In this document: one piece after another, positions 12,231 to 17,896 of the stretch | Position numbering within the stretch: the first letter of the stretch is position 1 | Layout: every line of letters starts with the position of its first letter | Source: an uncultured Pelagibacteraceae bacterium | Lineage (GTDB): Bacteria; Pseudomonadota; Alphaproteobacteria; Pelagibacterales; Pelagibacteraceae | Reading direction: 5' to 3' | Assembly (NCBI GenBank): GCA_902592265.1 | Contig: CACJDV010000001.1 | Coordinates: 124,001-188,000 of the forward strand | Length of the DNA: 64,000 nucleotides | Notes under the pieces: model-generated | What the model was told of the DNA's origin: nothing | Seen by the model: only the letters and a program-made list of their open reading frames with translations | Database searches by the model: none | Program-made: the position numbers and the translations under genes

Positions 12231-12794
12231 ATGAAAAGATTATCTGTTTTGTTTATTGTGTTCTTTGTTTTTACTACCAACGTTTATTCACAAGATGAAT
12301 TTTTTCAACCAGACGATTTATTTCATATAGATCACATGGATTCACATAACAAAGAATTTAGCTTGTATTTTAAAGGTAGAGAAAAATCTATTTTAGCAAG
12401 AGGCGAAAATGAAAATTATATAAATGATTATCCAAAGGATCTTTATATTTATAATCATTTAACAAAGTCCTCTTCACCTCTAATTTCTTATGAGTGGTTT
12501 CCTTCGCAAGCTAAATATCTTTTACAAGAATATGATTTTCCAGTGTTTCCAGATGATTTTGCATATTATTTATTAAAAGACGATAAAACATTAGTATTGA
12601 TTAGCGCCGTGAAAAGTTTAAATGCTAATTTTAAATATGACATCGCCAGTAAAAAACTAGAGCTTTACCCAACCACTGGTAAATTTGACTTTATAATCTC
12701 CTCATTTTCTAAAGATTGTGGTCATTATAAATTTGATGATAATTATAAATGTAATATCTACAAACCTTTGATCTCTAGCAATTTAATCAATTAA
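12231..12794 (+). CDS. Hypothetical secreted protein
   Basis: Signal-peptide-like N-terminus MKRLSVLFIVFFVFTTNVYSQ; no family recognised. Confidence 0.6.
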   Translation: MKRLSVLFIVFFVFTTNVYSQDEFFQPDDLFHIDHMDSHNKEFSLYFKGREKSILARGENENYINDYPKDLYIYNHLTKSSSPLISYEWFPSQAKYLLQEYDFPVFPDDFAYYLLKDDKTLVLISAVKSLNANFKYDIASKKLELYPTTGKFDFIISSFSKDCGHYKFDDNYKCNIYKPLISSNLIN

Positions 12795-13704
12795 TTTGAG
12801 TAAAAGCTTGGGCAAATTTTTCTGCTTCGAACAATTGTAAGTCGTCTTCTTTTTCACCCAAACCTAGCGCAATAATTGGAATTTCATATTTTTTTGCTAG
12901 CGCTAACAAAATTCCTCCCTTGGCTGTACCATCTAATTTTGTCATCACGATACCTGTTATCGGGATGATTTTATTAAATTCTTCGACTTGATTTAATACA
13001 TTTTGTCCTGAAGTTGCATCTAAAACTAAAATAACATTATGGGGTGCATTTGGATCTATTTTTTTTGTGACATTCGCTATCTTTTTATATTCTTCCATTA
13101 AATTTTTTTTATTTTGGAGTCTTCCTGCAGTATCTATCAAAACTTGATCAAAATTATTTTTAATAGCTTCATCCACTGCCTTAAAAGCAACTGAGGCAGG
13201 ATCAGCACCTTGAGATGATTTTACTATTTGAACATCTACTTTACTTGCCCAATTTTCTAGTTGTTCAATTGCTGCGGCACGAAATGTATCTGAAGCTGCA
13301 AACATGACCTTACTGCCGTTGATCTTTAATATCTTTCCTATTTTACCGATCGTTGTTGTTTTCCCAACACCGTTCACACCAGAAATTAATGTTGCATTAA
13401 GCTTTTCTTTTTTTTCAAAAAAGGATTTATTTTCCAAAGGTTTCATCAAAGAAATTATGTATTCTTTTAAAATAGAGTTTATCTCTTTAGATAGATCTTT
13501 ATTTGGGTCAATTTTTTTTCTAGAAATTATTTCTTTTATTTCAGAAGCAGCTTCAACCCCCACATCTGATTGAATTAAAAATTCCTCAATTTTATTTAAA
13601 TTTTCATCATTAATTTCTTTTTTTACAATTATTTCTTTAAGTCCAGATGTAATTGCTGATGCACTTTTCTTAAATCCAATTTTAAATTTGTCAAAAATTC
13701 CCAT
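12787..13704 (-). CDS. ftsY: Signal recognition particle receptor FtsY
   Basis: SRP GTPase motifs GVNGVGKTTTIGKIGK, DTFRAAAIEQL, DTAGRLQ, TKLDGTAKGG. Confidence 0.96.
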   Translation of the reverse strand: MGIFDKFKIGFKKSASAITSGLKEIIVKKEINDENLNKIEEFLIQSDVGVEAASEIKEIISRKKIDPNKDLSKEINSILKEYIISLMKPLENKSFFEKKEKLNATLISGVNGVGKTTTIGKIGKILKINGSKVMFAASDTFRAAAIEQLENWASKVDVQIVKSSQGADPASVAFKAVDEAIKNNFDQVLIDTAGRLQNKKNLMEEYKKIANVTKKIDPNAPHNVILVLDATSGQNVLNQVEEFNKIIPITGIVMTKLDGTAKGGILLALAKKYEIPIIALGLGEKEDDLQLFEAEKFAQAFTQIN

Positions 13705-14528
13705 TATAATTTTATCTTTATTTCTTTAATATCTGAAACAGGTCCTTTCATGTGAATAGAATTATTTTTATCTATAGAAATTGATAACTTTCCAGTTGCA
13801 AACTCTATATCAGTTTTATTTTCTGTAAGATTATTTAATTTACCTGCATATGCTGTAGCACACGCTGCAGTTCCGCAAGCTTTAGTAAGACCAGCTCCTC
13901 TTTCCCAAACTTTTACTTTGATCAAATTTTTATTAGAAATTTGCGCAATTGTTACATTACATTTCTCTGGGAAGATTTCGTGATTTTCTATCTCAGGGCC
14001 AATTTTCTCTATATTAAAATCCTCAATCCTTTTAACAAAAAAGACAATATGTGGGTTACCCACATTAATTGCAGTGCCACCTAAGTACTCATTATTATTT
14101 GTATCAATAATTTTGATATTTAAGTTTTTTGTATCCATTTCTTTTGATAAAGGTATTTCATCCCATTTTAACTTTGCTTTACCAATTTCTGTTGTAACAA
14201 TTTTTTTCTCTAAAATTTCAGATTTTAATTTTCCTGATAGCGTATTCAAAATAATTGACTTGTTATTTTTTTCATTTGAAATCAAATTTGCAACACATCT
14301 AGTTCCATTTCCACATGCTCCAGACTCTCCTCCATCTGAATTAAAAAATCTTAAATTTGCATCTGCAGAACTATCTGACTCAATAAATATTAGTTGATCA
14401 CAACCAATAAAATTTCTGTCACAAATTTTAACTATCTGATCTTTCGTCAAATTGGTAATTTTTTCTCTATTATCAATTATCACAAAATCATTACCCAATC
14501 CGTCCATTTTAAAAGCTTTGATGTCCAT
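13704..14528 (-). CDS. dapF: Diaminopimelate epimerase
   Basis: KMDGLGNDFVIID, SGACGNGTRCVA and TKACGTAACAT catalytic-Cys motifs. Confidence 0.96.
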   Translation of the reverse strand: MDIKAFKMDGLGNDFVIIDNREKITNLTKDQIVKICDRNFIGCDQLIFIESDSSADANLRFFNSDGGESGACGNGTRCVANLISNEKNNKSIILNTLSGKLKSEILEKKIVTTEIGKAKLKWDEIPLSKEMDTKNLNIKIIDTNNNEYLGGTAINVGNPHIVFFVKRIEDFNIEKIGPEIENHEIFPEKCNVTIAQISNKNLIKVKVWERGAGLTKACGTAACATAYAGKLNNLTENKTDIEFATGKLSISIDKNNSIHMKGPVSDIKEIKIKL

Positions 14529-14577
14529 ATATAGTTATTTAACTTATTTATTGACTTTTTGAACCTCTATTATAGTT

Positions 14578-14689
14578 TGTGGCGGTTTCCGCAAAAACAT
14601 TAAATTTGCGGTGTCTTTGGAAACAAAGAGATCGACACTAGTCAGCGAGGGTTCGCCCACTAGTGAGATTACTGCTGTGTGTAATAAAT
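14578..14689 (+). ncRNA. Candidate structured 5' leader RNA of ffh (multi-hairpin)
   Basis: Perfect stems CCGCAAA/TTTGCGG (14589-95/14605-11), GTGTC-TTTG[GAAA]CAAA..GACAC (14611-38), CACTAGT/ACTAGTG (14636-42/14659-65) enclosing GCGA[GGGT]TCGC, and ATTAC/GTAAT (14668-72/14681-85) just before the ATG at 14690. Confidence 0.7.
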
Positions 14690-16048
14690 ATGTTTGAAAA
14701 TTTAACAAATAAATTTGAGGAAGTTTTTTCCTCTCTAAAAAAAGCCCCATCACTTGATGAAAATCAGGTCGATGAAGGATTGAGAGGAATTAGACAAGCT
14801 TTATTAGAAGCTGATGTGTCTCTTGAAGTTGCTAAAGATTTTATTGAAAAGGTTAAACCAAAAGCATTAGGTCAAGAAATTATTAGATCAACATCACCTG
14901 GCGATATGGTGGTAAAAATTGTTTATGATGAATTAGTTAATCTTTTAGGTGAAAAAAATAATGATGTAAATTTAAATGCAGTTCCTCCAGTGCCAATGAT
15001 GCTTGTCGGGCTACAAGGTTCTGGTAAAACAACAACAACTGCTAAACTTGCGAGATATCTAGAGAATACAAAAAAAAAGAAAGTAATGATGGTCAGTTTA
15101 GATATTTACAGACCAGCTGCTCAAGAGCAGTTAAAATCTTTAGGTGAACAAAATAATATATTAACTCTTCCAATAATTGAAGGTCAACAACCTAGTGATA
15201 TTTGTCAAAGAGCAATTAGTGCAGCAAATTTGAATGGAGCAGATATTATCTTATTCGATACTGCTGGTAGAACACAAATAGATTTGCAGATGATGAGTGA
15301 AATTAAACAAATTGAAAATGCCATCAAACCTGCAGAGACGTTTTTAGTAGCTGACTCTCTTACCGGACAAGTAGCTGCATCAGTAGCAAAAGAATTTAAT
15401 AATACAGTAAATTTATCCGGAATTATTTTAACAAGGGCAGATGGTGATGCGAGAGGCGGGGCTGCTGTAAGCATGAAATTTGTTTCGCAGGTTCCAATTA
15501 AATTTTTAGGTATTGGTGAAAAGATCGAAAATCTTGAAGTTTTTCACCCAGATAGAATTGCAAATAGAATTCTTGGGATGGGAGATATTGTTTCTCTTGT
15601 TGAAAAAGCAGCCCAAGATCTTGGGGAAGAAAATATAAAAAAAACAGAAGAAAATTTAAAAAAAGGCCAATTTTCAATGCAAGATTATTTAACTCAACTG
15701 AGACAAATGAAAAAAATGGGAGGGATTGAAGGCATCATGTCTTTCATGCCAGGAGTTTCAAAGGTTAAATCTCAAATGGATGCCGCAGGTATTGATGAGA
15801 GTGTTATTACAAAAAATGAGGCTATAATTTTATCAATGACTAAAAAAGAAAGAGAGAACCCAAAAATAATTGATGGTTCTAGAAAAAAAAGAATTGCTAA
15901 TGGTTCAGGAACTGATCCAGCCACTATCAATAAATTGTTAAAACAATTTAAAATGATGTCTGAAATGATGAAGAAGATGTCAAAAGGAAATCTGAAAGGT
16001 ATGTCTGATAAAGGAATACCTCCAGAATTATTTAATCAATTAAAATAA
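14690..16048 (+). CDS. ffh: Signal recognition particle protein Ffh
   Basis: GLQGSGKTTTTAKLA, DIYRPAAQEQL, DTAGRTQ, TRADGDARGGAA; Met-rich M domain; internal ATG 14690 preferred over listed 14663. Confidence 0.96.
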   Translation: MFENLTNKFEEVFSSLKKAPSLDENQVDEGLRGIRQALLEADVSLEVAKDFIEKVKPKALGQEIIRSTSPGDMVVKIVYDELVNLLGEKNNDVNLNAVPPVPMMLVGLQGSGKTTTTAKLARYLENTKKKKVMMVSLDIYRPAAQEQLKSLGEQNNILTLPIIEGQQPSDICQRAISAANLNGADIILFDTAGRTQIDLQMMSEIKQIENAIKPAETFLVADSLTGQVAASVAKEFNNTVNLSGIILTRADGDARGGAAVSMKFVSQVPIKFLGIGEKIENLEVFHPDRIANRILGMGDIVSLVEKAAQDLGEENIKKTEENLKKGQFSMQDYLTQLRQMKKMGGIEGIMSFMPGVSKVKSQMDAAGIDESVITKNEAIILSMTKKERENPKIIDGSRKKRIANGSGTDPATINKLLKQFKMMSEMMKKMSKGNLKGMSDKGIPPELFNQLK

Positions 16049-16060
16049 AAAGGAGAGTAA

Positions 16061-16603
16061 ATGTTAAAATTAAGATTATCTAGAGGTGGCACAAAAAAGA
16101 GGCCTGTTTATAAGGTTGTTGTAGCCGACAGTCGATTTGCAAGAGATGGTAGATTTATAGAGAAAGTAGGTTTTTTCAATCCATTGTTACCAAAAGAAAA
16201 AAAAGAAAGAATTGGATTGGAGGCTGAGAGAATAAAATATTGGTTGGGTCAAGGTGCACAACCTACAACAAGAGTAGCTAGAATTTTAGGTGAGAATGAA
16301 TTGATGCCTATGCCTGCTAATGGAAATAACCCACAAAAAGCAATTCCAAAAAAAGATAGAAAAAAAGAAGGTTCGGAAGAAACTAAAAAGGAAGAGTCTC
16401 CAAAGGCAGATGCTGCTCCAGCTGGAGATGCTAAAAAAGACGAAGCACCAAAAGCAGAAGCTAAAAAAGACGAAGCACCAAAAGCAGAAGCTAAAAAAGA
16501 CGAAGCACCAAAAGCAGATGCTAAAAAAGACGAAGCACCAAAAGCAGAAGCTAAAAAAGACGAAGCACCAAAAGCAGAAGCTAAAAAAGAAGAGAAGAAA
16601 TAA
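16061..16603 (+). CDS. rpsP: 30S ribosomal protein S16 with long Lys/Glu/Ala/Pro-rich C-terminal extension
   Basis: N-terminus [41 protein letters not shown]; tail of [10 protein letters not shown] repeats. Confidence 0.95.
16430..16603 (+). repeat. In-frame 30-bp tandem repeat GCTAAAAAAGACGAAGCACCAAAAGCAGAA, five units plus a partial sixth
   Basis: Five consecutive near-identical 30-bp units (one A->T variant, unit 3), each encoding [11 protein letters not shown]. Confidence 0.95.
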
Positions 16604-16617
16604 AGTAAAGGATATTA

Positions 16618-17304
16618 ATGTTGCAAGCTCAAGTATTTACACTTTATCCAGATATTTTTCCTGGGCCTTTAGGAAAAGGTCTTTACGGAAAAGCAATGTC
16701 TAAAAAATTGTGGAGTTTGAATGTGATAAATATTAGAGATGCAGCTACAGACAAACATAAAACAGTTGATGATACTCCTTACGGCGGTGGAACAGGTATG
16801 TTATTAAAACCTGATGTTTTAGCAAATTCTATTGATCAAAACATAAATAAAGGAGATAGAATTTTGTATCTTTCACCGAAAGGTAAAGTATTTAATCAAA
16901 AACTCGCCCAAGATCTATCATTAGAAAAATCCTTCTCATTAATTTGCGGCCATTTCGAAGGTGTTGATGAGAGAGTATTATCTACAAGAAATATTGAAGA
17001 GATAAGTGTAGGAGACTATGTATTGTCAGGCGGAGAAACTGCTGCGCTAGTAGTGCTTGATAGTGTATTGAGACTTTTACCTGGAGTCTTAGGGAATGAT
17101 AAATCAGCTTCTGAAGAAACTTTTGAAAATGGCCTTTTGGAGTATCCACAATATACCAAACCCCAGATTTGGGAGGAAAAATCAGTTCCAGATGTGTTAT
17201 TATCTGGTGATCACGCTAAAATTAAAGACTGGCGTTTAACTCAATCTGAGGCTATAACACGCGACCGAAGACCAGATTTGTGGCATAAATATAAGAAAAA
17301 TTAA
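16618..17304 (+). CDS. trmD: tRNA (guanine-N1)-methyltransferase
   Basis: [55 protein letters not shown]. Confidence 0.96.
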
Positions 17305-17320
17305 TTTGTTAAATATTAAA

Positions 17321-17896
17321 ATGAAAACAATAGAGGAAATAAACCAAAATAACGTTAAAAAAATTCTTTCAGAAAAAAAGATCCCTGACTTTTTTCCTGG
17401 TGATGTTGTTAAAGTTGGTGTCAGAATTACAGAGGGAAAAAAAGAAAGAATTCAATATTTTGAAGGTGTTTGTATAGCTAAAAAAAGTAGAGACATAAAC
17501 TCCTCTTTTACTGTTAGAAAAATATCTTTTGGAGAAGGTGTTGAAAGAACTTTCCCGTTGTATGGAACTGTTATTGACTCAATCAAAGTAATTCGTTCAG
17601 GAAAAGTAAGAAGAGCTAAACTGTATTATTTAAGAGACAGAACTGGAAAATCTGCGAGGATCGCTGAAAAAATAAGAAAAAAAATTGGTATTGATATTGA
17701 CGTTAAGCCTGAGACTGTTACTGAAGAAAATCTAGCGCCAGCTGAAAAAGAAAGTGCACCAGAATCTGCAAAAGAGGCTACCCCAACTGTAGAGACTATA
17801 AAAGAAGATGCCCCAAAAACAGAGATGAAAAAAGAGGCACCCAAAGCTGAAACTAAAACTGAAAAAAAACTTGAAAATTTACAGGAAAAAAAATAA
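17321..17896 (+). CDS. rplS: 50S ribosomal protein L19 with charged C-terminal extension
   Basis: [46 protein letters not shown]; start chosen at ATG 17321 (track uses 17306). Confidence 0.95.

What the first reader, a model, noticed from the sequence alone, without database searches (positions are those of the whole stretch)
14578..14689. Compact multi-hairpin leader RNA before ffh, with mutually exclusive stems
The 5' UTR of ffh holds four successive inverted repeats: CCGCAAA/TTTGCGG (9-nt loop); GTGTC-TTTG[GAAA]CAAA-GAGATC-GACAC with a GNRA-type tetraloop; CACTAGT/ACTAGTG enclosing GCGA[GGGT]TCGC; and ATTAC/GTAAT ending 4 nt before the ATG. GACAC (14634-14638) and CACTAGT (14636-14642) share bases, as do the first stem (ends 14611) and the second (starts 14611), so full pairing of neighbours is mutually exclusive, as in a switch. 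A TATAGT box at 14571-14576 is well placed to start transcription near 14580. I recall a computationally predicted ffh-leader motif from P. ubique intergenic surveys; if this is it, its ligand or partner is still unknown to me.
Basis: partly seen in the sequence, partly recalled or inferred. Interest (0 to 1): 0.8.

Follow-up and report, generated by a model that had tools for sequence, protein, structure and literature searches.

The report
ffh leader RNA, probably ribosomal-protein regulator
The folded RNA before the ffh gene is a known but unexplained bacterial RNA; an ocean clade that has lost ffh and the rest of its protein-targeting particle still carries it, now directly before the gene for ribosomal protein S16, so it most likely regulates ribosomal-protein synthesis and does not sense Ffh.

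Summary
The hairpins are real, and 14621-14674 matches Rfam RF01793 "ffh" (50.4 bits, cut-off 35).

Comparison of 86 SAR11-family leaders and about 80 other alphaproteobacterial ones extends and corrects the structure. Hairpin P2 is 14609-14634 (CGGU/AUCG base, G·G mismatch, 6-bp stem, GAAA loop); it covaries strongly and occurs class-wide. P3 is the Rfam hairpin, with a nearly invariant C·C mismatch. P1 (14589-14611) also covaries. P1 and the P2 base share C14609-G14611; this alternative pairing has only suggestive support (two triple compensatory changes).

The main new evidence concerns the partner. The marine PS1 clade lacks Ffh and FtsY (0 of 18 genomes) and 4.5S RNA (0 of 4), yet keeps RF01793 directly upstream of rpsP (S16) in all 14 matching genomes. 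Elsewhere rpsP follows ffh in 51 of 52 loci. Ffh therefore cannot be the general effector. An autogenous leader for the rpsP-trmD-rplS unit, S16 first candidate, fits best. Protein binding is inferred, not shown.

The parts
14571..14576 (+). -10-like box TATAGT (5 of 6 to TATAAT); would start the RNA near 14583, just before P1. Inferred, not shown.
   Evidence: sequence; -10-like boxes at this place in relatives; no -35 at normal spacing
14589..14611 (+). P1 hairpin: CCGCAAA / UUUGCGG, 9-nt loop
   Evidence: 98% of cells paired, double changes at 14591-14609 and 14592-14608
14609..14634 (+). P2 hairpin: CGGU 14609-12 / AUCG 14631-34, G14613-G14630 mismatch, UCUUUG 14614-19 / CAAAGA 14624-29, GAAA loop; shares 14609-14611 with P1
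   Evidence: 99.7% paired, 7 of 10 pairs with change on both sides; class-wide hairpin before P3
14636..14665 (+). P3 hairpin (the Rfam stem): CACUAGU / ACUAGUG, internal loop C14643-A14644 opposite C14657-C14658 with C-C mismatch, GCGA[GGGU]UCGC
   Evidence: RF01793 14621-14674, 50.4 bits; 100% paired in SAR11; C-C kept in about 81 of 83 class sequences
14666..14680 (+). Tail behind P3 (consensus GCRNUU..UGYUGG in relatives)
   Evidence: TTG/TTGG-type tail in 66 of 70 class sequences by a loose pattern; leaders listed
14690..16048 (+). ffh, SRP GTPase; ATG 24 nt behind P3
   Evidence: Pfam SRP54, SRP54_N, SRP_SPB
16061..16603 (+). rpsP, ribosomal protein S16 with a repetitive C-terminal tail
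   Evidence: Pfam PF00886
16618..17304 (+). trmD, tRNA (guanine-N1) methyltransferase; no rimM between rpsP and trmD
   Evidence: Pfam PF01746; ORF list
17321..17896 (+). rplS, ribosomal protein L19
   Evidence: Pfam PF01245
13704..14528 (-). dapF, divergent neighbour, also divergent upstream of the motif in SAR11 and PS1
   Evidence: Pfam PF01678

Best explanation
The leader is a member of RF01793 and works as a cis-acting regulator of the ffh-rpsP-trmD-rplS transcription unit, most likely by autogenous feedback from a ribosomal protein of that unit, S16 first and L19 second. Excess r-protein would bind the P2-P3 hairpin pair, recognising the C-C mismatch and the AUCG/AUCA segment, and lower expression of the unit. 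In the window the first AUG lies 24 nt behind P3, so bound protein could block initiation at ffh. Shown here: the structure, its conservation, and its attachment to rpsP where ffh has been lost. Inferred: protein binding, the protein's identity, and whether control acts on translation, termination or mRNA decay. A refolding step, P1 against the P2 base, is possible in SAR11 but only suggestive. By step: Ffh is not the general effector 0.85; r-protein unit leader 0.6; S16 itself 0.4.
For: PS1-clade genomes have no SRP54-type GTPase, so neither Ffh nor FtsY (0 of 18; 4 of 4 also with relatives positive), no 4.5S RNA (0 of 4 against 5 of 5 relatives), but SecY in 14 of 18. Fourteen of the 18 keep RF01793 above cut-off, each with rpsP starting shortly behind it, and the P2 base varies in a paired way there (CGGU/AUCG, CAGU/AUUG, CAAU/AUUG; model hits in 16 of 16 loci). 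In other class loci with enough sequence rpsP follows ffh in 51 of 52, the exception a chimeric contig. Published precedent: a predicted S16 leader in Flavobacteria (PMC7247131); regulation of the trmD operon is stated to be unknown (PMC10931766).
Against: No binding data. Outside PS1 the gene next to the RNA is ffh, and rpsP lies about 1.4 kb downstream, apparently with its own Shine-Dalgarno sequence, so control would have to be polar. The distance from P3 to the ffh start varies from about 25 to 300 nt, which does not suit simple blocking of one start site. No resemblance to a 16S site was found with simple patterns. S16, TrmD and L19 genes stay together in every locus seen, so synteny cannot separate them.
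Confidence: 0.5

Rival explanations
1. Ffh autoregulation: free Ffh binds the leader in place of 4.5S RNA and represses its own gene.
For: In most carriers the first gene behind the RNA is ffh, and P3 shares the string GUCAG with the known 4.5S domain IV (own knowledge).
Against: PS1 keeps the RNA without Ffh, FtsY or 4.5S RNA. The A of GUCAG is replaced by C, G or U in 36 of 83 class sequences. Meyer et al. also found no resemblance to the Ffh site.
Confidence: 0.12
2. Not a sensor: a 5' stabiliser, processing signal or source of a short RNA, with little regulation.
For: Rfam classes it as sRNA; short transcripts are reported in Bartonella and in marine metatranscriptomes. P1 would sit close to the 5' end of the RNA.
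Against: Mismatched and apparently unpaired bases (C-C, the AUCR segment) are conserved across the class, more than a protective hairpin needs.
Confidence: 0.2
3. Small-molecule riboswitch with P1 / P2-base exchange as its expression platform.
For: P1 and the P2 base share 14609-14611, and the triple 14591-14609-14634 changed together on two lineages. The 5' end pairs with the tail in a genus-specific way (13 other genera p 0.004).
Against: Only two triple events; the 5'-end pairing is not supported within the window's genus (p 0.61); in PS1 P1 does not overlap P2 by inspection; the conserved core is two short hairpins without an obvious pocket.
Confidence: 0.1

Closest known systems
Rfam RF01793 ffh / ffh motif of Meyer et al. 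2009 (PMC2704228)
   Same: Same element: the P3 hairpin and the segment 5' of it, upstream of ffh in SAR11; 50.4 bits against a cut-off of 35.
   Different: The published model is one bulged hairpin named for ffh. Here P2 is a full covarying hairpin, P1 and the tail are added, and the element is found on rpsP without ffh in PS1.
Predicted S16 r-leader of Flavobacteria (Eckert and Weinberg 2020, PMC7247131)
   Same: Conserved leader upstream of rpsP(-rimM), with S16 proposed as ligand.
   Different: Other phylum; its structure was not compared here; no Rfam match other than RF01793 approaches its cut-off in the window leader.
L19 leader (Firmicutes, also found in Flavobacteria; named in PMC7247131)
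   Same: r-leader for a protein that is also encoded in this unit.
   Different: Other phyla; no match in the window leader.
4.5S RNA domain IV (Ffh binding site)
   Same: Shares the string GUCAG and an internal loop in a hairpin (own knowledge).
   Different: The loop sequence is not conserved as in 4.5S RNA, and the element outlives the SRP in PS1.

Membership tests
RF01793 ffh | Covariance-model score above the gathering cut-off | tested here: met
   50.4 bits against 35
RF01793 ffh | Bulged hairpin with two conserved bulge cytosines | tested here: met
   C14643 and C14658; C-C kept in about 81 of 83 class sequences
RF01793 ffh | Lies upstream of ffh | tested here: met
   ATG of ffh at 14690; but upstream of rpsP in PS1
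Ribosomal-protein leader | Conserved structured RNA upstream of an r-protein gene or unit | tested here: met
   ffh-rpsP-trmD-rplS in the window; rpsP directly behind it in PS1
Ribosomal-protein leader | Binds the r-protein encoded by the unit | not testable with these tools
   needs binding assays
Ribosomal-protein leader | Resembles the protein's rRNA site | tested here: inconclusive
   simple pattern search in the 16S rRNA and flanking sequence of the window's genome found nothing convincing
4.5S RNA decoy / Ffh-binding leader | Conserved 4.5S-like internal loop | tested here: not met
   position 14644 varies A, C, G, U; no 4.5S-type loop
4.5S RNA decoy / Ffh-binding leader | Occurs only where Ffh exists | tested here: not met
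   PS1: no SRP54 GTPase in 18 of 18, RF01793 in 14 of 18
Switch with alternative helices | Mutually exclusive helices both under selection | tested here: inconclusive
Switch with alternative helices | Structure changes on ligand binding | not testable with these tools
   needs probing with and without ligand

The most novel reading that the evidence does not exclude
RF01793 is the alphaproteobacterial S16 (bS16) leader, misnamed after ffh: S16 binds the P2-P3 pair and, in SAR11, shifts the RNA from P1 to the P2 base so that the 5' end can pair with the tail and shut off the unit. It outlived the complete loss of the SRP pathway in the PS1 clade.
Probability: 0.25. Interest if true: 0.75.

Novelty: new member of a known kind. 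Interest (0 to 1): 0.58.

Why it matters
RF01793 has been an orphan since 2009 and was tied to ffh. A natural loss of ffh that leaves the RNA on rpsP redirects the search for its partner to S16, L19 or TrmD and makes it testable with a small set of binding assays. Regulation of the trmD operon is described as unknown. If S16 is the ligand, this would be an r-leader for it across much of the Alphaproteobacteria, including the very abundant SAR11. The element itself is already catalogued; what is new is the extended structure and the functional reassignment.

Tried and rejected
ATTAC/GTAAT hairpin: confined to a few own-genus leaders. 4.5S mimicry: rejected. Extension of P3 by AUC/GAU, seen in the single-sequence fold: GAU is not conserved in the alignment. 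5'-end x tail helix: supported between genera, not within the window's genus. Shared rRNA motif: nothing convincing with simple patterns. L134 looked like ffh without rpsP, but its ffh frame runs into sequence antisense to a recF-like gene beside dnaA/dnaN, so it is taken as a chimeric contig. The all-pairs covariation test with a tree-preserving null is strict: only one pair lies above every null value, so the helices rest on pair counts and same-branch changes. Literature on SRP loss in PS1: no paper found.

Full report
Observation. The leader folds more stably than its shuffles (z -2.9), and Rfam RF01793 "ffh" matches 14621-14674 at 50.4 bits (cut-off 35). Meyer et al. 2009 (PMC2704228) described this motif in P. 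ubique as a single bulged hairpin upstream of ffh, found also in Rhodobacterales, Sphingomonadales and Rhizobiales, with two conserved bulge cytosines.

Distribution. In the genomes held here RF01793 occurs in 169 of 197 SAR11-family genomes and 106 of 385 genomes sampled over the class. Leaders were collected from 95 SAR11-family and about 80 other loci, and ffh starts were placed by tblastn.

Structure. On 63 distinct SAR11 leaders (A1), P3 pairs in 100% of cells. P2, read as CGGU/AUCG + G-G mismatch + six pairs + tetraloop, pairs in 99.7% with changes on both sides at 7 of 10 pairs. P1 pairs in 98% with double changes at 14591-14609 and 14592-14608. RNAalifold gives P3, the same P2 less its outermost pair, and a shortened P1 without being told. 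Same-branch compensations on a tree support 14616-14627, 14617-14626, 14619-14624, 14639-14662 and 14592-14608. The last hairpin is found in 3 of 18 own-genus leaders and nowhere else.

Beyond SAR11. A covariance model of P2+P3 built from SAR11 (R1) finds nearly all class loci. Pair counts on the fitted alignment, which lean towards the model, show change on both sides in 20 of 21 pairs. Without any model, the bases 3-6 nt before P3 have pairing probabilities of 0.63-0.81 against 0.44-0.52 in shuffles. So a P2 hairpin next to P3 is a class-wide part that the 52-position Rfam model holds only on its 3' side. The internal loop of P3 is a C-C mismatch (5' C in 81, 3' C in 82 of 83) beside a position that takes A·C, C-G, G·U, U-A or A·A.

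Mutual exclusion. P1 (CCG/CGG) and the base of P2 (CGGU/AUCG) both need 14609-14611. Position 14609 stays complementary to both 14591 and 14634 (C with G and G, U with A and A) in nearly all leaders. The triple changed together on two lineages, the deep split of the family (its root is ambiguous) and the L061/L065 pair. That is what alternating helices would leave behind, but two events are few, and in PS1 P1 does not overlap P2 by inspection. A long-range helix of the RNA 5' end with the tail behind P3 is supported between genera (own pairing better than swapped by 1.5 kcal/mol, median p 0.002; 13 other genera p 0.004), but not within the window's genus (p 0.61). A switch is therefore possible, not shown.

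The natural experiment. Two class loci had the motif with rpsP directly behind it and no ffh (L149; L123). They belong to one family, which genome records name as the marine PS1 clade (L210, L212). Its 18 genomes have no SRP54-type GTPase over the cut-off, that is neither Ffh nor FtsY (one sub-cut-off partial hit), while all 14 named controls and the related genomes ring. SecY is found in 14 of the 18 and in 6 of 6 good assemblies. Four of four also lack 4.5S RNA, against five of five relatives. Fourteen of the 18 keep RF01793 over its cut-off, each followed shortly by rpsP; dapF is divergent upstream in 13, and the remaining locus (L297) has its motif at a contig edge. The R1 model finds the element in all 16 PS1 loci tested (E 3e-12 to 8e-8). 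The P2 base varies in a paired way (CGGU/AUCG, CAGU/AUUG, CAAU/AUUG), so selection on the RNA continued after ffh was lost. In other class loci with enough sequence rpsP follows ffh in 51 of 52, the exception being a chimeric contig.

Meaning. Ffh cannot be the effector in PS1, and it is unlikely that the RNA changed its ligand there only. The partner is best sought in what all carriers share: the rpsP-trmD-rplS unit. RimM is absent from the unit in the window and in part of PS1 (L212, L291), so it is a poor candidate. Ribosomal-protein units are usually controlled by one of their own products (established knowledge); an S16 leader is predicted in Flavobacteria (PMC7247131), and a 2024 review states that there is no information on regulation of the trmD operon (PMC10931766). 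S16 is the first candidate because its gene is the one next to the RNA where ffh is gone; L19 and TrmD are not excluded. The step from RNA to lowered expression is not settled: P3 ends 24 nt before the ffh AUG here but up to about 300 nt away elsewhere, and rpsP seems to have its own Shine-Dalgarno sequence in the window (AAGGAG before 16061).

Verdict. Known element, corrected and extended structure, and a strong reason to reassign its role from ffh to the ribosomal-protein genes behind it. Binding is untested.

Noticed in passing
PS1 clade genomes (family of G049), e.g. L149, L123, L210, L212, L290-L303: The whole clade appears to lack the signal recognition particle: no SRP54-type GTPase (Ffh, FtsY) over the cut-off in 18 of 18 genomes and no 4.5S RNA in 4 of 4, while SecY is present in 14 of 18. 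No paper describing this was found in the held library.
   Followed up: yes
window 16061-16603: S16 carries a long C-terminal tail of repeated [10 protein letters not shown]-type units behind its PF00886 domain; PS1 S16 (L149) has a tail of another repeat (PAPAAEVAPA).
   Followed up: no
window 16603-16618; L212, L291: rimM is missing between rpsP and trmD in the window and in part of the PS1 clade.
   Followed up: partly
window 12787-14528 (-) and 14690-16048 (+): Both SRP GTPase genes lie within 4 kb: dapF-ftsY runs away from ffh on the other strand.
   Followed up: no
L134: Probably a chimeric contig: an ffh start runs into sequence antisense to a recF-like gene next to dnaA/dnaN.
   Followed up: partly
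G000 (window's assembly), G207: Bacterial small SRP RNA (RF00169) is not found in the window's assembly (85.7% complete) and scores below its cut-off (34.3 bits) in a complete genome of the same genus, so the SAR11 4.5S RNA fits the Rfam model poorly.
   Followed up: no
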